The notes under the pieces were generated by a model. That model was not told the DNA's origin. It was given only the letters and a program-made list of their open reading frames with translations, and ran no database searches. The position numbers and the translations under genes are program-made. A stretch of DNA of 64,000 nucleotides from Ligilactobacillus cholophilus (GTDB lineage Bacteria; Bacillota; Bacilli; Lactobacillales; Lactobacillaceae): NCBI RefSeq assembly GCF_030389495.1, contig NZ_CP127832.1, positions 806,001 to 870,000 of the forward strand. The letters are read 5' to 3'. This document shows, in pieces, positions 5,081-55,234 of this stretch (the stretch's first letter is position 1; each line of letters starts with the position of its first letter).

Positions 5081-6799
5081 TTAATTCATTGGATATTGCC
5101 GTTGTGCTTGTTCTTGTGATTCATAATCATCTGTAATTCGTTTGTAAATTCCAGGTTCAACCTCTTCCAAAGCATTTGAAATTACATCTAAAGCATCGAC
5201 ATAATCGAATTGTTTGTTAAACATGTGATCTGCTTTTTTATAAGCTGCATCAACTTCTGGATAGCGTGTACGATAACGGTTTGCGTATTGTAAAAATTCT
5301 TCCGTTAAAGTTGCACAATCGATGATTTCTTTTGTCTTATCACCTAATACATCTAGATCTGATTGTGTATTAATTAATCCCTTAGTAATTTCATCCATAT
5401 TAATTTGGATTTGATTTAAAGCTTCATCTAAAGCTTGAATTTCATCACTAACTTTAAAGAAATAATCAGTATATTCTCTTGAAAGCCCTGGAAGATTTAA
5501 TTTTTCAATATCACGACGCATACGGTGGATTTCCAAATCAAATCCTTGAACTGCTTTTTGAGCTTCTTTTTCTTCTTTCCAAAGATTTGAAACATTATCA
5601 TTAATTTCTTGTTGATGTTTTTCAATCTTTGTAAGCTTTTTAATATTATCTTTTTGTGTAGCTAATTCTTTTGAATAGATTACACCTTCAGTACGTTGCT
5701 TTGTAAAATTATCAAAGGACTTACGAATATCTTGAATTTGTGCTTGAAGATCACGTGCATCTTCCATTTCATTATGAGTTAATTCATAATTTTGTGATAA
5801 ACGATCTAAGTCAATTAATAATTCATGTTCTTGTTCTTCAGCATGTTCTAAAAATTCTTGATAATATTTATAATTCTTTTCTACTAATTTACGTGAACGA
5901 TATTCTGTATCTACTGTATCGTAAACCTCTTCAATTAGGTCTCCTAATTGATCGTTAATTTTTTCTGCATCCTTAATATTTGTTTTTTCTAAATTAACAA
6001 GGTTTTTGTCTAAAAGTCGTTGAATTTCAGCTAACTTTTTCTTTAGATTTTCACGAAAGACATATTTTTCTTTTAATAATTGATCAACGGCTTGATTTAA
6101 CTCTTCAATTTGTTCTGGATAAACGTTTTTGAGATTTTTATAAATTGGAGGAATCTTTTCTACTTTTTCTTCCATATCAGCTGTTGCCGCTTGTAATTCA
6201 GCAAGTGGCTTAGCTGATTTCACATAATCTCCACTTTCCATTACACGAGTATAATCATCAAATTTTTGTTCTAATTCACCTAATTGATCTTCTAATTTTT
6301 CACTGCTAGGGCCGAATGAAAAGCTTTTTGCTAGTAATGTTTTGCGTAAATCTTTGTATTTTGCACTAAGTTCTTCTACTGCTTTTTGATGTTCTTCAGT
6401 AACTTTCCGAATATCATCCATCTTGGCTTTTATTTCATCAAATTGCTTTGTTAATGCTGTTAATTTATCACTCACATCAGCTAATTCACTTTTTACTCGT
6501 CCAAATTGATAATGCTGATTTAATTCTTGCAAATCATTTAAAATTTCAGAAACTTCAGGTAATTTACGATTTACAATTTCACGGTAATCTTCATCAATTT
6601 TTTCAAATTCATTTAAACTATCGCCTGATAGATTCAAATGACTAATTTCTGCCATTTCTTTTTCAAGAGAGGTATTGGTTATTTCCTTTACTCCTTCTTG
6701 GTAACTATCGATTAATTTAGTGTTGTGTCGCTTATATAGAAATACGCTAAGATAAATCACCAGCGCAACAATTACTAGCGATACTAAAAAGATAATCAT
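5081..6799 (-). CDS. ezrA: Septation ring formation regulator EzrA
   Basis: Membrane-anchored negative regulator of FtsZ ring formation that also links division to cell wall synthesis. The 572-residue protein has one N-terminal transmembrane segment (about residues 2-20), then almost continuous coiled coil rich in E, K, L and Q, the expected spectrin-like repeats, and the usual full length for the family. It is transcribed alone, divergent from rpsD, with its own terminator. In many lactobacilli and bacilli ezrA, the nifS-like gene and thiI are neighbours near rpsD, which supports the call. Confidence 0.93.
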   Translation of the reverse strand: MIIFLVSLVIVALVIYLSVFLYKRHNTKLIDSYQEGVKEITNTSLEKEMAEISHLNLSGDSLNEFEKIDEDYREIVNRKLPEVSEILNDLQELNQHYQFGRVKSELADVSDKLTALTKQFDEIKAKMDDIRKVTEEHQKAVEELSAKYKDLRKTLLAKSFSFGPSSEKLEDQLGELEQKFDDYTRVMESGDYVKSAKPLAELQAATADMEEKVEKIPPIYKNLKNVYPEQIEELNQAVDQLLKEKYVFRENLKKKLAEIQRLLDKNLVNLEKTNIKDAEKINDQLGDLIEEVYDTVDTEYRSRKLVEKNYKYYQEFLEHAEEQEHELLIDLDRLSQNYELTHNEMEDARDLQAQIQDIRKSFDNFTKQRTEGVIYSKELATQKDNIKKLTKIEKHQQEINDNVSNLWKEEKEAQKAVQGFDLEIHRMRRDIEKLNLPGLSREYTDYFFKVSDEIQALDEALNQIQINMDEITKGLINTQSDLDVLGDKTKEIIDCATLTEEFLQYANRYRTRYPEVDAAYKKADHMFNKQFDYVDALDVISNALEEVEPGIYKRITDDYESQEQAQRQYPMN

Positions 6800-43685: not shown

Positions 43686-43702
43686 TAAACTGTTATAATT
43701 AT

Positions 43703-43774
43703 TGAGCATTCGCCAAATTGGTAAGGCAGTGGACTCTGAATCCATAATTTACAGGTTCGAACCCTGTATGCTCA
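43703..43774 (+). tRNA. tRNA-Gln (anticodon CUG)
   Basis: 72 bases fold as a cloverleaf: acceptor TGAGCAT/ATGCTCA with the U1-A72 pair usual for tRNA-Gln, anticodon stem GTGGA/TCCAT with loop CTCTGAA (anticodon CUG), and T arm ACAGG/CCTGT around TTCGAAC. No CCA is encoded. Its 3' 13 bases are part of the attachment core of the element that follows; the tRNA stays whole after integration. Confidence 0.95.
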
Positions 43775-43779
43775 ATTGA
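43762..43779 (+). repeat. attL core repeat
   Basis: CCCTGTATGCTCAATTGA, identical to 55217-55234. Its first 13 bases are the 3' end of tRNA-Gln, the normal attachment type for tyrosine integrases. Confidence 0.95.
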
Positions 43780-43962
43780 GACCTTTATAACTATCTATGA
43801 TTGTCTATAAACGTTGAGTTTATAGGCTTTTTTATTTTCTAGTATCTACAAATAATTGTGGATAACTACACTGGAGAGACCCTAAAAGAGACCCTGAAAC
43901 GCATTAGACAATCATTGATATATTAACGATTATCAACAATAAAACATAAAAAGAGAGACCCT
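43778..43962 (+). repeat. Left-end arm-type repeats (GAGACCCT)
   Basis: The octamer GAGACCCT occurs at 43876, 43888 and 43955, and GAGACCTT at 43778, all in the same orientation. Two of them are 12 bases apart, the same spacing as the pair at the right end (55136 and 55148). They probably are arm-type integrase binding sites. The stretch has no gene; a further hairpin is listed separately. Confidence 0.7.
43805..43838 (+). terminator. Hairpin just inside attL, likely terminator
   Basis: CTATAAAC (43805-43812) pairs perfectly with GTTTATAG (43818-43825) around GTTGA, followed by GC and a T run; it would stop transcription coming from the tRNA. It also contains the ATAAACGTTGA motif found in the origin region. 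Confidence 0.7.
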
Positions 43963-45103
43963 AATTTAAATAATTAGCAAATTTAATTACTGTTTCGCTT
44001 TGCTCTTTTTGTGTAACGTGAGTATATACATTTAATGTAGTTTTTGCATCCGCATGTCCTAACCTGTTTTGAACCTCTTTTATGGTTGCTCCTGCTTGGA
44101 ATAATATACTTGCATGAGTATGCCTAAAGCCATGACAAGAAATATATTTCAAACCATATTTCTTACTTAATTGATGCATCCAGTTATTTGGTCGTGTTGG
44201 ATGCAAGATTGACCCTTTTTTATTTGAAAATATTAAGCGGTCATCAAGAATATTTTTTCCATTCATATAAAAAATATGCGACTGTTTAACTTTCCATTCT
44301 TTTAAAATGCTCATGGTTTCTTTATCCATATATAAATTACGTTTGCTTGATAATGTTTTAGGCGATTGAATAACTAACTTATTATTTTCAACCATAGTTA
44401 CAGTTTTATTAATTGTAATCATGTTTTTATTAAAATTAATATCTTTCCAAGTAAGTGCCAAAGCCTCGCCTTTTCGCATTCCGCTATATGCTAGCAAACG
44501 AAAGAAAGTGTAAATTTTAAAATTACCATTATTCTTACAACAGTGTAAAAACTGGTTTAATTCTGCTTTTGAATAAAAATTTGTGAAAGTGGATGCATCC
44601 CTTTTTATTTTTGGTTTAGTAACGTTCTTAAAAGGGTTTTTATTGATAATTTCTAATTTAACAGCATAATCAAGTATTCTAGTTGTATAAAATACATATC
44701 TGTTTAATTGCTTAGGATATTCTTTAAACCACTTATTAACAGCCTTTTGACAATCAACAAGCGTTATTTTTTTAACATAGTAATCTTTAAAAAGTGGTAA
44801 TACATGCATATTTAAAATACGTTTAGTGGTTGCAAAGGTTGAGGGCTTAACAGTTCCTTTATATAAATCAAACCACAATTCTAATAACTCATTAAATCTA
44901 ATATTACTATCCTGTTTAAAAAATTCGCCTGTGCTTACTTGATATGAAATTTTTGAAAGCTCTTTTTGTGCATCTTGTTCGCTTAAAAAATTAGAACGCT
45001 TAACGTAACGCTTTTTGCCTGTCTTTTCATCTACACCCGCATACAAACGAAATTTGTAACGTGTTTCATGTTTTGAATTTTCGTACTTAACAATTTTTAC
45101 CAT
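43961..45103 (-). CDS. int: Tyrosine recombinase (phage-type integrase)
   Basis: 380-residue site-specific recombinase. N-terminal arm-binding part (KYENSKHETRYKFRLYAGVD), SAM-like core-binding domain (about 60-150), and catalytic domain with the first arginine in YSGMRKGEALALTWKDI, HGFRHTHASILFQAG (HxxR) and the nucleophile in LGHADAKTTLNVYTHV. It points to attL, as expected for a tRNA-integrated island. GGAATTTCTTTCTTTG-rich upstream sequence gives the ribosome binding site (AAAGGAATTTCAGGA). Confidence 0.96.
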   Translation of the reverse strand: MVKIVKYENSKHETRYKFRLYAGVDEKTGKKRYVKRSNFLSEQDAQKELSKISYQVSTGEFFKQDSNIRFNELLELWFDLYKGTVKPSTFATTKRILNMHVLPLFKDYYVKKITLVDCQKAVNKWFKEYPKQLNRYVFYTTRILDYAVKLEIINKNPFKNVTKPKIKRDASTFTNFYSKAELNQFLHCCKNNGNFKIYTFFRLLAYSGMRKGEALALTWKDINFNKNMITINKTVTMVENNKLVIQSPKTLSSKRNLYMDKETMSILKEWKVKQSHIFYMNGKNILDDRLIFSNKKGSILHPTRPNNWMHQLSKKYGLKYISCHGFRHTHASILFQAGATIKEVQNRLGHADAKTTLNVYTHVTQKEQSETVIKFANYLN

Positions 45104-48477: not shown

Positions 48478-49266
48478 ATGAACACAAAACAAAAAGCGTT
48501 ACAGCTTGCTAAAAACAAATTTAAAGTATTTCAGTTATCGCATAACAGCAAAATACCTCTTAAAAATTCTCATGGCTATAAAGATGCTACTAATGATATT
48601 GATTTAATTAAACAAACTTATCATAAACAAAATAATCTAGGACTAGCATTATCGCAAAATAAATTAGTGCTTATTGATATTGATATAAGTAATCAAAATC
48701 AATTAAAGGAAGTTTTAATTGAACTTAAAAAAAGAAATTACAACTTACCTCAAACATATACCGAGAGAACCCAAAGCGGTGGAACTCATCTAATTTATAA
48801 AACTAATAAATCACTAACGCCAACTAATAAAACATTATTCAATTTAGGTAATCATCTTGGCGCAGAAATACGAACAGACGGCGTTATTATTTCGCCCTCT
48901 TGCGTTGCTGAATACATTTATAAACCGATTAATAATATTAGTCTACAAGATGCAACTAAAGCGCCACGTTGGATATATAACGAATTACAACAGCATCCAA
49001 ACACTGATTTTCATTACAAAATAAGAGTACCAACTAATAAATATTACACTGGTAAAAAATTAGATGAGATAGCAAAAGGAACAGGACAAGGAAACCGCAA
49101 TAACTGGCTTACTGGCGTTATTGGTTGGCTTTTTGGAACTGGTGCAGACCCTGAAACAGTTTACCAGTTTGCGCATGCTATCAATGATACCTTTATTAGT
49201 CCACCATTGAAAAATAAAGAAGTAAATACAATATTCAAAAGCATATTAAGGAGGATGACCGCGTAA
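48478..49266 (+). CDS. pri: Prim-Pol primase (bifunctional primase/polymerase domain)
   Basis: 262 residues. N-terminal Prim-Pol domain (about 5-170) with LVLIDIDIS (metal-binding DxD), ERTQSGGTHLIYKT and the LGAEIRTDGVIISPS core; C-terminal PriCT-like domain (GQGNRNNWLTGVIGWLFGTG). It would make primers at the element's own origin. Its stop is directly followed by the helicase start codon, whose ribosome binding site AGGAGG is inside this gene. Confidence 0.93.
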   Translation: MNTKQKALQLAKNKFKVFQLSHNSKIPLKNSHGYKDATNDIDLIKQTYHKQNNLGLALSQNKLVLIDIDISNQNQLKEVLIELKKRNYNLPQTYTERTQSGGTHLIYKTNKSLTPTNKTLFNLGNHLGAEIRTDGVIISPSCVAEYIYKPINNISLQDATKAPRWIYNELQQHPNTDFHYKIRVPTNKYYTGKKLDEIAKGTGQGNRNNWLTGVIGWLFGTGADPETVYQFAHAINDTFISPPLKNKEVNTIFKSILRRMTA

Positions 49267-50820
49267 ATGATGCTTATTGACGAAGAAACACAAAAGAATA
49301 TGGAAAAGTTACGTAAATTACAACAATCAAATAATGAACCACCCAAAACAAACCAAGAACTATTTAGCAAATTGAAACAGGCGGGCAATAATTTGCGTAA
49401 AAATAAAGAATACACTATTGAAAGCGGAGCGCATAAAGGAGAAGTAAGAAAGCCACGTTTAACATTCAGAGAAATAACTAACATTGTTGAAAAATATGCA
49501 ATTTTTAGAACTATTGGAGAAAATGAGAAAGAATTAGAACAATCGCCGTTATATTGGTATGACTTAGACAACGGAATATATACAAAGAATATAAAAAGAA
49601 TTAGTACGCTGATTAATTATGTAGATAATCAAGCAACCGAAAGAATGATTAAAGAAATTAGGAATAAGTTACTTATTGAATGTAAAGAAACATCTAGAAC
49701 GTATGATAATAATTTAACTATTGTAAATAATGGCATCTATAACCGTGAAAAAGATAAATTATTGCCCTTTAGTCCTGATTATGTATTTACTACAAAAATA
49801 GCGACTAATTACAACCCGAATGCATCCACTGAACCCGTTTATAATGGTTGGTCTGTTTCTAAATGGTTTAATGAAATTGCAAACGGACAACAAGACAAGA
49901 TTAATCTATTATGGCAAATTATCACGGCTAGCATTGACGCTAATATTTCGCATGAAGCTGCTATCTTTTTAGTAGATAACGGACAAGGAAGAACAGGAAA
50001 AAGCACTTTTGAAAAATTGATAATGAACTTAGTTGGCGAAGAAAATTGCGGACAATTAAAACTAATTGAGTTTGAAGATGATTTTAAACTTGCGGGCGTG
50101 GATGAAAAAGCCGTAATTATTGGAGATGATAATGACCCAAATACATTTAATGAAAATAGTAGCAATTTTAAATCTTTAGTAACTGGCGAAACAATGATTA
50201 TTAACCCGAAAGGACTACCCTTATATTACAACCGTTTTAATAGTTTAATCATTCAATCAATGAATGGCGTACCACGTTTTAAAGATAGTACAGACGCTCA
50301 TTTAAGACGGTTTAGAATTGTAAAATTTAATCATCAATACCAAGCGACGCCTAAAAATAGAAAAATCAAAGATGATTATATTAATCGTAAAGAACTACTT
50401 GAATGGCTTTTATATAAAGCCTTGCATAGCAAACCAGTAACTACATTTATTCAAACAGACGAAAGCAACAATGCAACACAAGAGATTAAAGAAGATAATG
50501 ACGCCGTTTATTATTTTATTAATAAATATTTGGACGAGTTAGAAAGTACACGCATACCAAGCTCATTTTTATTTAATTATTTCATGGTTTGTATGGACAT
50601 GGAAAACAACCACCAAAAAATTAAACAACGTACTTTTACTTTAAGAGTGCAAAAGATTTTAAAAAATAAAGGTTGGGAATATACACCAACACCAAGATTA
50701 AAGCCACTTAAATATTGGAGTGGTAAAGATCAACAGAAATTGGATGAATTAAGAAACGACCAACGTTATTTATGCAATGTTGACCCCGATAAATACCAAC
50801 GATTATTTTATAAAAAATAG
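49267..50820 (+). CDS. rep: Phage/plasmid-type SF3 helicase (D5/P4 family replication protein)
   Basis: 517 residues; the N-terminal part carries a D5-N-like region (about 110-230), followed by the SF3 helicase domain with Walker A VDNGQGRTGKSTFEKL (about 233-248), Walker B VDEKAVIIGDDND and motif C around IIQSMNGVPRF. The C-terminal D5 winged-helix region starts near 420. With the Prim-Pol gene it makes the replication module of phage satellites; it probably melts the origin-like region immediately downstream. Confidence 0.93.
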   Translation: MMLIDEETQKNMEKLRKLQQSNNEPPKTNQELFSKLKQAGNNLRKNKEYTIESGAHKGEVRKPRLTFREITNIVEKYAIFRTIGENEKELEQSPLYWYDLDNGIYTKNIKRISTLINYVDNQATERMIKEIRNKLLIECKETSRTYDNNLTIVNNGIYNREKDKLLPFSPDYVFTTKIATNYNPNASTEPVYNGWSVSKWFNEIANGQQDKINLLWQIITASIDANISHEAAIFLVDNGQGRTGKSTFEKLIMNLVGEENCGQLKLIEFEDDFKLAGVDEKAVIIGDDNDPNTFNENSSNFKSLVTGETMIINPKGLPLYYNRFNSLIIQSMNGVPRFKDSTDAHLRRFRIVKFNHQYQATPKNRKIKDDYINRKELLEWLLYKALHSKPVTTFIQTDESNNATQEIKEDNDAVYYFINKYLDELESTRIPSSFLFNYFMVCMDMENNHQKIKQRTFTLRVQKILKNKGWEYTPTPRLKPLKYWSGKDQQKLDELRNDQRYLCNVDPDKYQRLFYKK

Positions 50821-52237: not shown

Positions 52238-52251
52238 AGGAAGTATATTAA

Positions 52252-52704
52252 ATGAACATATTAGAATTATTATTCGCTGATATTTACGAATTTAACGACC
52301 AAACACACAAATTATTAAATGACTACAAGAGATTAAAAAACCTAGATAGCTATTTAAATGACCGCTTTAAACAACTAACAGCAAATCGCATTTATACGCT
52401 TAAATTTCCATTTAATCTACATAAAAGTAAAATGATTATTGATGATTTAAGCGACCCAAAAGAGATAACAAAATATAATAATGAAGTCCACGAATTTAAT
52501 AGTTTAGCGGATAACGTTAAGAGACTAAACCAACATTTAAACAGCTTACAAATAGAAATCGGAATGCTTGCTGATAGTTTAACTTTTGATGATTACTTGG
52601 AATGTTGTAAAGATTATCCCGAAATGAGTAGCAAAGAAGAATATAATAATATTCAAGACAAATTAAAGGGTTTCAAAGAATATCTATATAAGCAAATTAA
52701 ATAA
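52252..52704 (+). CDS. Unknown helical protein (150 aa)
   Basis: 150 residues, mostly helical with coiled-coil potential (NDQTHKLLNDYKRLKNLDSY and VKRLNQHLNSLQIEIGMLAD), no TM, acidic. Last gene before the terminator at 52714. Satellite genes at this place often act on helper phage packaging, but no motif is recognised. Confidence 0.7.
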   Translation: MNILELLFADIYEFNDQTHKLLNDYKRLKNLDSYLNDRFKQLTANRIYTLKFPFNLHKSKMIIDDLSDPKEITKYNNEVHEFNSLADNVKRLNQHLNSLQIEIGMLADSLTFDDYLECCKDYPEMSSKEEYNNIQDKLKGFKEYLYKQIK

Positions 52705-52713
52705 AATATTATG

Positions 52714-52739
52714 GCCGTGATTATTCACGGTTATTTTTA
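52714..52739 (+). terminator. Terminator of the main rightward operon
   Basis: CCGTGA pairs with TCACGG (52715-52730) and is followed by TTATTTTTAT. Confidence 0.8.
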
Positions 52740-52927
52740 TCCCCCCTACTATTAAAAAATATAATTACAAATAGCTAGGAGCGGACACGGACATTCATTT
52801 ATAATAAATTCGCTTTTCAAAAGTTTTTTATTATGATTGGCATAGCAATATTATTAATAATGAACCTGACAAAACCTAACATATTTTTTAATATCGGGTG
52901 CGAAATCTAAAATTTAATATTAAATAA

Positions 52928-52950
52928 AACTGGAAAATATCCAGTTTTTT
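52928..52950 (+). terminator. Second terminator before the antitoxin module
   Basis: AACTGGA (52928-52934) pairs with TCCAGTT (52940-52946), followed by a T run. Confidence 0.75.
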
Positions 52951-53246
52951 ATTTTATATAACTGACTGCATCCATTTTAATTTTATAAATATGGTTTACA
53001 AAATATGCTTTTTATATTTTGCTAATTGCTTATTATAGTAACGTTTATTAATGTTTTGATTAACTTTAATGTAAACTGGACAAAACTAGACAAAACGCTC
53101 CTTTTTGTTTTGGGTAAATCATTGATACAAAGCATATTACAGCCACTTTAATAGTTTTAATTGTCCAGTTTAGAAACGTTGGTAAAATATTGAAAGGTAT
53201 TAAAATTAATTGAATGTAAAAAATATTTATTTTTTATTAAATATAA

Positions 53247-53299
53247 TTGACGTTTATTAAATTTTATTGTAGATTTTTATTCTGTGTTACAATCACAGT
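53247..53299 (+). promoter_or_regulatory. Promoter and operator-like repeat of the antitoxin module
   Basis: TTGACG (53247-53252) and TAGATT (53270-53275) are 17 bases apart. Just after them CTGTG-TTACAAT-CACAG is an inverted repeat (53282-53298), a possible operator for autoregulation. RBS CTAGGAGGTTTTAAAA follows. Confidence 0.5.
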
Positions 53300-53337
53300 A
53301 ATGATTAAAGTATCACATTTTCTAGGAGGTTTTAAAA

Positions 53338-53856
53338 ATGTTAGCTATGGACTGTGCTGATTATATTGTTGATAAGGCAATTAAAGAAAAATTATCAATT
53401 ACAAATTTACAACTTCAAAAGGTACTTTTTGTTTTAGTTGCCCAATACATTAAAGAATATAATTGCGACTATCCTTTAGATAGCTTTTTTAAAGCTTATG
53501 ATTATGGTCCAGTTATTCCTGAAGTATATGCAGAATATAGCAGTTATGGTTCAAATCCTATAAAAAAAGTTAGCGACCATGAGGAATTTAATTTTAATAG
53601 TTTTCAATTTGAAACTCATACATATAATGAAGAAAAAATACCTTCTGAATTTAAAGATTTAGTAAAAAGGTATTTAAAAAAATTATTAAGTATAAATGTA
53701 TTTAATATAGTGGAATATACACACTCACTTCCATTATGGAAACAAAATGAAGAAGATATTCATAGTCATGAACCTATTTATTATGGGAAAAATGATGTTA
53801 AATTAGATGCAGATTTAGATACATTAATACGCAATAATTTTGTTAGAGGACAATAA
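53338..53856 (+). CDS. Panacea/SocA-domain (DUF4065) antitoxin
   Basis: 172 residues with the domain signature at the N terminus: DCADYIVDKAIKEKLSITNL, QLQKVLFVLVAQYI, then FFKAYDYGPVIPEVYAEYSSYG. Panacea domain proteins (PanA) are antitoxins that neutralise many unrelated toxins, often membrane-active ones, by direct binding; SocA, an adaptor for ClpXP, belongs to the same group. It is 2 bases before its partner gene, in an operon with its own promoter and terminator. The target toxin is inferred from context. Confidence 0.9.
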   Translation: MLAMDCADYIVDKAIKEKLSITNLQLQKVLFVLVAQYIKEYNCDYPLDSFFKAYDYGPVIPEVYAEYSSYGSNPIKKVSDHEEFNFNSFQFETHTYNEEKIPSEFKDLVKRYLKKLLSINVFNIVEYTHSLPLWKQNEEDIHSHEPIYYGKNDVKLDADLDTLIRNNFVRGQ

Positions 53857-53858
53857 TT

Positions 53859-54850
53859 ATGGATGAACAAAATCGTAGTAAAGATTTATTATTTTTAACA
53901 TTAGTACTTAATATTTTGTATATCAAAAATGAAATAGGCTTATCAAAAAATCAATATAATCGCGTTTCAAAATTAATAAAACAATATAATCTACAAACTA
54001 GTAAAAAAGAAAACTATTATATGTTAAAAGTATCTGATAAAACTCACATAAAAAAAGATTTAAGTATGATGCTTTTAAAATTATTATCCATGTTAGATAA
54101 AGATAATATTCCTTATGATGAAATAACAGAATTAATTTATAACTGCAAAATGAAACTATATGATGATAATAGTGATGCTTCGTATGAGTTTAACTTGTAT
54201 TTTGATGAAAAAGAAAATGATCCTTTATGTAACAATGATAAAAAAATTAAAACTAAAATTGAAACACATTTTAAACTTTGTATGTTACAGATATCTAAAA
54301 TACAAGAAGAAAGTTCAGAGGCAAGCGAAATAGCTCGGAAAGCAAAAGTAATAGCAGAGGATGCAAGCAATATTAAAAATTCTATATATACAGATTTTAT
54401 CGCAATATTAGGAATATTTTCAGCATTAATTTTTGGGATGTTTGGTGGTTTTGATAGTCTAAAAGAAATTTTATCAAATCTTCATAATACTTCTATATCT
54501 ACTACTCTTATATGTTTTTCTTCATTGATGCTAGGATTACTTTGTTTGATATTTTTATTAATTCAAAGCATTGCAAGAATAACAGACAGGGATACACTAA
54601 GTTGTAGTCATCATGGAAACGATAAAAAATGCGAATGTAGTATCATAAAAAATATCCAGTTTTTATATGCTCAATGCTTATTTTTTCAGCTATTTTAATT
54701 ATTAGTTGCATAATTAGATTTTTTGATCATAATGAATTATATAAGGCTGTACCGATTTATTTGATAATTGCTGGAATACTAACTATAATTATAGCTATTG
54801 TTCTCTATGTTGTATTTAAAACTAATAAAAAGAAAAAACATTCACATTGA
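53859..54850 (+). pseudogene. Multi-TM partner (putative toxin/effector), frame broken at a T6 tract
   Basis: The open frame 53859-54698 encodes 279 residues: a soluble acidic and helical N-terminal part (about 1-165), a coiled coil (EESSEASEIARKAKVIAEDA) and two TM segments (DFIAILGIFSALIFGMFGGF; LICFSSLMLGLLCLIFLLIQ). At about 54678-54685 a run of six T is followed by an early stop. One added T would continue SAILIISCIIRFF and a fourth TM, AVPIYLIIAGILTIIIAIVL, with a basic end KTNKKKKHSH and stop at 54848-54850, 28 bases before the terminator. So the ancestral protein is about 330 residues with four TM. It could be inactivated, phase-variable or a sequencing error; the T6 is not a canonical frameshift heptamer. 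Confidence 0.8.
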
Positions 54851-54877
54851 ATTAATTATATAAATTTTATGATTTTT

Positions 54878-54915
54878 CTCACGTATTATCTTGAATGGTT
54901 TACGTGAGTTTTTTT
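54878..54915 (+). terminator. Terminator of the antitoxin module
   Basis: CTCACGTA (54878-54885) pairs perfectly with TACGTGAG (54901-54908), followed by seven T. It marks the natural end of the partner gene at 54850. Confidence 0.92.
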
Positions 54916-55025
54916 ATATACTCAATCAGTAAAACATACTTTTAAACTTAACTCTTTCATATTACTTTAATTTAATTTTATTTTTAATACATCTATCTTT
55001 TAAAAATGCTAACAAATGCTAACAT

Positions 55026-55056
55026 AAAAAAATAACCATGTTAAAAAACACGGTTA
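55026..55056 (-). terminator. Minus-strand terminator near the right end
   Basis: On the minus strand TAACCGTG pairs with CATGGTTA (one G-U) and is followed by seven T (plus A run 55026-55032). No minus-strand gene precedes it inside the element, so it may insulate the element from host transcription. Confidence 0.65.
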
Positions 55057-55135
55057 GGAATTTCAAGGGTTGTTATGTACATTTAAATTATATCATTTCT
55101 TGTAATTATAAGAACAGGCAAACTTTATTTATTGA

Positions 55136-55155
55136 GAGACCCTAAAGGAGACCTT
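55136..55155 (+). repeat. Right-end arm-type repeats
   Basis: GAGACCCT (55136-55143) and GAGACCTT (55148-55155), 12 bases apart, copy the left-end pair at 43876 and 43888. Confidence 0.7.
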
Positions 55156-55172
55156 ATAAAAAAGCAACATCA

Positions 55173-55199
55173 TTAAACGCTTGATATATCAACGTTTAA
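55173..55199. repeat. Right-end palindrome with the origin motif
   Basis: TTAAACG and CGTTTAA flank the perfect palindrome TTGATATATCAA. The inverted form of TAAACGTTGATATAT is the motif repeated in the origin-like region. Confidence 0.7.
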
Positions 55200-55216
55200 G
55201 GCTATTTGTTTTTGTG

Positions 55217-55234
55217 CCCTGTATGCTCAATTGA
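55217..55234 (+). repeat. attR core repeat
   Basis: CCCTGTATGCTCAATTGA, identical to attL; only the last 13 bases of the tRNA are copied, so no second tRNA exists here. Confidence 0.95.

What the first reader, a model, noticed from the sequence alone, without database searches (positions are those of the whole stretch)
53338..54850. Panacea antitoxin paired with a four-TM partner at the satellite's cargo end
Seen: a clear Panacea/SocA domain gene 2 bases before a gene for a soluble N-terminal part, coiled coil and TM segments, in an isolated transcription unit between two upstream terminators and its own terminator. Known: PanA antitoxins neutralise diverse, often membrane-acting toxins. Inference: a toxin-antitoxin type anti-phage or island-maintenance system; the partner resembles no toxin I can name, and the coiled-coil plus four-TM layout suggests a membrane-damaging effector.
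Basis: partly seen in the sequence, partly recalled or inferred. Interest (0 to 1): 0.78.

Follow-up and report, generated by a model that had tools for sequence, protein, structure and literature searches.

The report
Mobile toxin-antitoxin pair, membrane effector
A satellite-like island in a probable lactobacillus carries a two-gene toxin-antitoxin pair of a widespread but untested family; its predicted membrane-damaging half is frame-broken in this copy, while intact relatives travel on streptococcal and listerial phages, streptococcal satellites and a lactobacillar plasmid.

Summary
A Panacea (PF13274) gene, 53338-53856, lies 2 nt before a partner gene, at the attR end of an 11.5-kb integrase/primase island (18-bp repeats at 43762 and 55217). 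The window's partner ORF (279 aa) has only TM1-TM2; the TM3-TM4 part is a 58-codon remnant in another frame. A 97.7-98.4% identical cargo block in a Ligilactobacillus MAG (L002) carries an intact 330-aa, 4-TM protein. The partner belongs to an unnamed family (phrog_5763): variable N-part, coiled coil continuing into a conserved TM1, then one to three more TMs, cytosolic-N by charge. A Panacea gene lies directly upstream in 52 of 54 distinct loci. One exception pairs the same membrane core, under an unrelated N-part, with an RmrA-like (M78) antitoxin. PanA divergence tracks the partner's N-part far more than its membrane core. In six loci the partner is broken and PanA intact; the reverse was not seen. 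Best reading: a PanAT pair with a membrane effector held by PanA at the N-part, probably anti-phage cargo. Toxicity, neutralisation and defence are untested. Membrane PanTs, one with coiled coil and TMs, are published, so this is a new family within a known kind.

The parts
43762..43779 (.). attL, 18-bp repeat at 3' end of tRNA-Gln
   Evidence: identical to 55217-55234; tRNA-Gln 43702-43776
43961..45103 (-). tyrosine integrase of the island
   Evidence: PF00589 E 6e-30
48478..50820 (+). primase-polymerase and D5-type helicase of the island (two genes)
   Evidence: PF09250 E 2e-18, PF08708, PF19263, PF03288
52711..52734 (+). terminator-like hairpin upstream of the pair
   Evidence: z -5.2
52926..52948 (.). 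second terminator-like hairpin, found on both strands
   Evidence: z -3.3
53324..53329 (+). AGGAGG, likely ribosome-binding site of PanA
   Evidence: read from the sequence
53338..53856 (+). PanA, stand-alone Panacea antitoxin, 172 aa
   Evidence: PF13274 E 1.8e-11; model pLDDT 88
53859..54698 (+). partner (putative PanT), truncated ORF, 279 aa; its last residues are out of frame
   Evidence: family phrog_5763 by its intact relative L002
53859..54224 (+). variable N-part of the partner (residues 1-122)
   Evidence: model of L002's protein; mean majority-residue frequency 0.20
54225..54374 (+). coiled coil (residues 123-172), one helix with TM1 in the model
54375..54458 (+). TM1 with the family motif (residues 173-200), most conserved part
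   Evidence: mean frequency 0.66; G185 and F187 in 45 of 45, F192 in 44 of 45 near-complete partners
54507..54563 (+). TM2 (residues 217-235)
   Evidence: hydropathy
54674..54850 (+). 58-codon remnant carrying TM3 and TM4 in another frame, identical to L002 over all 174 nt compared
54878..54915 (+). terminator of the pair (8-bp outer stem, then T run)
   Evidence: z -5.1
55217..55234 (.). attR, 18-bp repeat

Best explanation
The two genes are a type II toxin-antitoxin pair of the PanAT kind. The partner is a membrane effector: a cytosolic N-part and coiled-coil stalk run into a conserved first transmembrane helix followed by one to three more helices. PanA binds the N-part and stalk and keeps the membrane helices from assembling; when an infecting phage or another stress disturbs PanA, the effector oligomerises through its coiled coil and depolarises or perforates the cell membrane, stopping growth before the phage finishes. 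The island carries it as cargo that protects its host cell and so itself. Shown here: two-gene linkage, family conservation, membrane topology by charge, PanA tracking the N-part, presence on mobile elements. Inferred: toxicity, oligomerisation, neutralisation by binding, phage trigger. In this window the effector has lost TM3-TM4 to a frame lesion, so this copy is probably inactive or altered, unless the lesion is a sequence error.
For: PanA directly upstream in 52 of 54 distinct loci, all found by the partner alone (48 of 50; one broken locus; three more viral loci, each below 66% identity to any other). 45 of the 48 gaps are -60 to +20 nt. These PanAs were called with a home-made profile seeded from the loci and then checked: 52 of 52 match PF13274 and no other Pfam family; PMC10440598 (abstract and passages) reports that stand-alone Panacea neutralises directly and contacts the region before the TMs of one PanT. 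Distances over 43 pairs: PanA vs partner N-part partial r 0.45 (p 0.0005), vs TM core 0.08 (p 0.045). K+R density alternates 0.18/0.09/0.17/0.07/0.31 along pre-TM1, loops and tail: N-in. TM1 is the most conserved part (0.66 against 0.15-0.41 elsewhere), odd for a mere anchor. Six loci have a broken partner with intact PanA, none the reverse. L088: the same core with an unrelated N-part behind an M78/RmrA-like antitoxin. Published membrane PanTs and the Rosmer toxin of phage Kita depolarise membranes, and the Kita pair blocks some phages (PMC8832971, PMC10440598).
Against: No toxicity or neutralisation data were found for any member. The AlphaFold model is weak (mean pLDDT 68, pTM 0.42) and has no convincing solved-structure match, so it gives no mechanism. 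No detectable homology to Kita gp33; homology to the validated membrane PanTs could not be tested. The decay imbalance (6 to 0) is weak because the partner gene is about twice as long. The TM-core correlation with PanA is small but not nil. The N-part aligns poorly, and one of the 43 pairs (L004) has a truncated partner. The window copy is broken.
Confidence: 0.68

Rival explanations
1. Same toxin-antitoxin pair, but its main role is to keep the satellite, prophage or plasmid from being lost (addiction), not to stop phages.
For: Carried by integrated elements and by a mobilizable megaplasmid; a terminal cargo place fits either role.
Against: A place after the lysin or next to attR is the usual one for conversion and defence genes (general knowledge, no call); integrated elements need addiction less than plasmids; broken toxins beside intact PanA occur in six loci, so loss of the toxin is tolerated.
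Confidence: 0.25
2. The partner is not a killer but a membrane receptor or exclusion protein that blocks phage DNA entry, with PanA as its regulator.
For: Strong TM1 conservation and the place after the lysin in the five non-satellite phages opened, as for superinfection-exclusion genes.
Against: Panacea partners validated elsewhere are toxins (PMC8832971); the same core is found once behind an RmrA-like antitoxin; exclusion proteins are not known to need a dedicated antitoxin (general knowledge).
Confidence: 0.1
3. The window copy is a dead remnant: toxin inactivated, PanA kept as passive immunity against the same toxin on other elements. This can be true together with the best explanation of the family.
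For: Frame lesion with PanA intact; five other loci show the same pattern; PanA differs from L002 by 5 residues only.
Against: The remnant is identical to L002 over 174 nt, so the lesion is very recent or a sequence error; TM1-TM2, the conserved core, is still encoded.
Confidence: 0.45
4. PanA and the partner are neighbours by chance within a cargo hot spot.
For: Cargo regions collect unrelated genes; L002 has an extra DUF1304 gene there.
Against: 52 of 54 distinct loci keep the pair in the same order, and only one PF13274 gene exists in this genome.
Confidence: 0.01

Closest known systems
PanAT systems with membrane PanT (Helicobacter sp., E. coli, Bartonella; PMC8832971)
   Same: Panacea antitoxin next to a TM-bearing partner; the Helicobacter PanT has an N-terminal coiled-coil-like part and C-terminal TMs and depolarises membranes (paper's words)
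   Different: No streptococcal pair is named in that main text and Table 1 lists one lactobacillar pair, a toxSAS; whether this partner family is one of the paper's 88 predicted clusters could not be read (supplements not available); sequence homology to those PanTs untested
RosmerTA (RmrA/RmrT; PADLOC, PMC10440598)
   Same: Small operon of antitoxin and membrane toxin on phages; in L088 the same membrane core is paired with an M78/RmrA-like protein
   Different: Window antitoxin is Panacea, not M78; Kita gp33 (119 aa, 2 TM; taken as its toxin) shows no homology (hhalign probability 0.2%)
PHROG family phrog_5763 (unknown function)
   Same: Partner family matches it: L002 E 7e-33, Streptococcus prophage copy E 7e-68; 9 of 9 partners tested hit it
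   Different: The PHROG carries no function; this report adds its linkage to Panacea and its architecture
RipAB/Spr1630-Spr1629 of S. pneumoniae (PMC12795458; abstract and passages)
   Same: Rosmer-type antitoxin; L088's antitoxin weakly matches the spr1629 model (E 1.9e-6, 27 bits against a cut-off of 335)
   Different: RipA acts on DnaN; the words 'membrane' and 'transmembrane' do not occur in that main text

Membership tests
PanAT (Panacea toxin-antitoxin) | One gene with a Panacea domain (PF13274) above its cut-off | tested here: met
   45.4 bits vs 25.7; 52 of 52 PanAs of related loci match at E <= 0.001
PanAT (Panacea toxin-antitoxin) | Two-gene arrangement within 100 nt conserved in at least two species (criteria quoted in PMC8832971 section 5) | tested here: met
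   Gap 2 nt here; 45 of 48 distinct PanA-bearing clusters within -60..+20 nt
PanAT (Panacea toxin-antitoxin) | Partner is toxic when expressed alone | not testable with these tools
   Indirect only (decay pattern)
PanAT (Panacea toxin-antitoxin) | PanA neutralises by direct complex | not testable with these tools
PanT membrane toxins | Transmembrane segments in the partner | tested here: met
   3 TMs in 25, 4 in 19, 2 in 1 of 45 partners of at least 225 aa, by hydropathy; window ORF has 2
PanT membrane toxins | Sequence homology to a validated membrane PanT | not tested
   Their sequences were not at hand
RosmerTA | Antitoxin with M78/ImmA domain | tested here: not met
   Window PanA has PF13274 and no M78 match; one related locus, L088, does have M78
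RosmerTA | Homology of partner to RmrT | tested here: not met
   No RmrT-named PADLOC match (whether that library holds RmrT models was not checked); Kita gp33, taken as RmrT, hhalign probability 0.2%

The most novel reading that the evidence does not exclude
phrog_5763 proteins are a modular, transferable membrane effector: one conserved TM core with interchangeable N-terminal adaptors, each adaptor fitted to a different antitoxin class (Panacea in nearly all loci seen, an M78 ImmA/IrrE-type antitoxin in at least one), so that phages, satellites and plasmids swap sensors while keeping the same membrane weapon; a Cys/His-rich loop between TM2 and TM3 in most streptococcal, listerial and viral members adds a possible metal or redox switch.
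Probability: 0.3. Interest if true: 0.7.

Novelty: new member of a known kind. Interest (0 to 1): 0.5.

Why it matters
It gives a likely function to a recurrent 'hypothetical protein' family that sits behind the lysin gene of streptococcal and listerial phages and at the end of streptococcal satellites, and offers a natural swap (Panacea or M78 antitoxin over one membrane core) with which the open question of how Panacea recognises so many toxins can be tested directly.

Tried and rejected
Tried without result: Pfam and PADLOC on the window partner and nine relatives, NCBIfam on eight relatives, gave only weak, mostly coiled-coil-like matches below cut-offs; the window's own partner was not run against NCBIfam or PHROGs. 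The partner model found nothing convincing among solved structures (best Foldseek E 2.0) and, at E below 0.002, three viral proteins; a profile search of PDB sequences gave one hit at E 0.095. The PanA model (pLDDT 88) has no convincing solved match either. Class-level search with alignment A1 gave 5 of 398 genomes and phylum-level search with phrog_5763 1 of 299, the window's own; these and one search scored only six or seven candidates a genome, so they are lower bounds. L003's partner had no match in plasmids or phages, nor L055's in plasmids.

Considered and rejected: membership in RosmerTA; homology to Kita gp33 and to the Javan226 2-TM protein; strong purifying selection on the pair from its low difference to L002 (8 in 1513 coding against 37 in 803 flanking positions), because many flanking differences are clustered as if exchanged in blocks and all 8 coding changes are nonsynonymous. 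A first conservation count (44 sequences) had been restricted by the very motif it then found invariant; it was redone without that filter on 45 sequences chosen by length alone, and those numbers are given. The charge profile is's set.

Dropped rows: of the 51 clusters, eight were left out of the distance test: L003, L034 and a second L087 fragment (no PanA), L016 (PanA cut by the contig start), and L013, L015, L032 and L087 (core incomplete or not matching the script's pattern). L087's two fragments count as one locus, hence 50 loci. Six rows under 225 aa were left out. L037's partner starts 112 nt after PanA and may lack part of its N-part; it was not counted as broken.

Papers seen: PMC8832971 (abstract, passages, section 5 part 1 of 2, section 10), PMC10440598 (passages, section 5), PMC12795458 (abstract, passages), PMC12322248, PMC13376191 and PMC6813308 (passages or term counts only: the last two hold no SocA or DUF4065); others only as listings.

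Full report
What is there. The window holds an integrated element bounded by identical 18-bp repeats at 43762-43779 (3' end of tRNA-Gln) and 55217-55234. Of nine of its genes compared with Pfam, the integrase, primase-polymerase and D5-type helicase are clear and none is structural; its other ORFs were not searched. This is the layout of a phage satellite, but packaging and helper dependence were not tested. The last two genes before attR are PanA (53338-53856; PF13274 E 1.8e-11) and, 2 nt on, the partner (53859-54698). Terminator-like hairpins flank the unit on both sides. Promoter-like matches are no more than chance.

The partner is frame-broken here. The ORF gives 279 aa with TM1 and TM2; the rest lies in a 58-codon ORF in another frame. 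The Candidatus Ligilactobacillus excrementigallinarum MAG (L002) holds a related element whose core genes are 73-78% identical to the window, but whose cargo block is 97.7-98.4% identical, and there the partner is a continuous 330-aa protein. The remnant is identical to L002 over 174 nt, so the lesion is very recent or an error of sequence.

The family. The intact partner matches phrog_5763, function unknown (E 7e-33). Relatives were found in 16 of 301 genomes of the window's family and, with phrog_5763, in 15 of 395 of its order, the window's own included in both; in 17 phage records and 1 plasmid record; and in 21 plus 5 viral contigs, two of the 5 being repeats. I opened 10 of the 18 phage and plasmid records. 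In all five non-satellite phages opened the pair follows the lysin gene; in three of the four satellites opened (Javan397, 375, 212) it lies within 350 nt of the record end, in Javan360 it does not; the tenth is an L. salivarius megaplasmid.

Linkage to Panacea. At 90% identity the partner ORFs of 87 loci fall into 51 clusters, one locus (L087) giving two fragments, so 50 distinct loci; 48 have a Panacea gene directly upstream. Adding a broken locus missed by that script (G041) and three further viral loci gives 52 of 54. The loci were found by the partner alone. PanA was called by a profile seeded from the loci themselves, and 52 of 52 of these genes then matched PF13274. The two exceptions are L034, a partner fragment next to transposase-like ORFs, and L003/L088, where a 372-aa M78 protein matching PADLOC RmrA models (best E 8e-14) precedes the partner. 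L088's partner shares the membrane core (49% identity over 114 aa with L055), while its N-part finds one 24-residue match (E 0.006, in the coiled-coil stretch). Of the three full-length relatives of its M78 protein among phages, two are followed by DUF4411/PIN proteins and one is not, so in L088 either the toxin or the antitoxin seems to have been exchanged.

Architecture. The model (16 sequences, mean pLDDT 68) is all helical, with one helix, residues 123-210, spanning coiled coil and TM1, then TM2, TM3 and TM4. Positive charge alternates as for a cytosolic N-terminus. Over 45 partners of at least 225 aa, chosen by length only, the mean majority-residue frequency is 0.20 in the N-part, 0.66 in TM1, 0.41 in TM2, 0.28 in TM3 and 0.15 in TM4; G185 and F187 are found in 45 of 45, F192 and G196 in 44 of 45. 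The broken L015 copy has A for G185. Of the 45, 25 have three TMs, 19 four and 1 two. A permissive Cys pattern between TM2 and TM3 (mostly C-x-C/H...C-x-H/C) is matched by 27 of 43 members, among them L002 but no other of the 13 lactobacillar rows; a metal or redox role is inference.

Which part meets PanA. Over 43 pairs, PanA distances follow the distances of the partner's N-part (rank correlation 0.48, partial 0.45, permutation p 0.0005) and hardly those of the TM core (0.20, partial 0.08, p 0.045). The N-part as cut there includes the coiled coil and aligns poorly, so this is suggestive. It agrees with the L088 swap and with the published contact of stand-alone Panacea with the segment before the TMs of another PanT (PMC10440598, passages).

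Toxin-like decay. The partner is broken with PanA intact in six loci: the window, G094 (L004), G041 (L009/L090), G102 (L013), G148 (L015/L091) and G106 (L087/L089). No locus shows an intact partner with a broken PanA; L029 has both shortened, L034 lacks PanA, and L016's PanA is cut by a contig end. The partner is about twice as long, so the imbalance alone is weak.

Mechanism. From these facts and from published PanATs I infer a membrane effector restrained by PanA at its N-part and released on infection or stress. Membrane PanTs stop transcription, translation and replication and depolarise cells, and one has an N-terminal coiled-coil-like part and C-terminal TMs (PMC8832971, passages and section 10); the Rosmer toxin of Gordonia phage Kita depolarises and forms pores, and its system blocks some phages (PMC10440598, passages). 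Kita gp33, which I take to be that toxin from its place after the M78 gene, has no detectable homology to this family. Everything past linkage, topology and covariation is untested here.

Novelty. The kind is known. No library searched names the partner family's function, and paper searches for Panacea with antitoxin and toxin, DUF4065/SocA with prophage, DUF4065 with phage satellite, PanAT, and DUF4065 with phage defence showed no work on it in the listings returned, three of which were capped (25 of 34, 20 of 31, 20 of 321). The 88 PanT clusters and the NetFlax nodes sit in supplements that could not be read, so it may already be one of them.

Noticed in passing
L002:6639-7037: A DUF1304 membrane protein gene (PF06993, E 4e-24) sits in the cargo block of the related element before PanAT and is absent from the window around 52916-52923.
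   Followed up: partly
L103 (Streptococcus phage Javan226) 2381-3443: An M78 gene overlapping a 162-aa gene with two C-terminal TMs follows the lytic transglycosylase gene: a Rosmer-like pair in the slot that PanAT takes in other streptococcal prophages.
   Followed up: partly
L100:2489-4173 and L102:2363-4038: M78 proteins related to L088's antitoxin are followed by DUF4411/PIN proteins in unannotated gut phage records.
   Followed up: no
L027 (L. salivarius plasmid NZ_CP062072.1) 1980-4831: PanAT lies beside an AbrB and PemK/MazF pair and a Fic gene, a cluster of toxin-antitoxin-like genes downstream of a relaxase.
   Followed up: no
window 43874, 43953, 55134: GAGAGACCCTAA repeats near both att sites look like integrase arm-binding sites.
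   Followed up: no
L002:7053-9379 and 5932-6604 vs window 52251-55232: Cargo block nearly identical between elements whose core genes differ by about a quarter: recent exchange of the cargo end only.
   Followed up: yes
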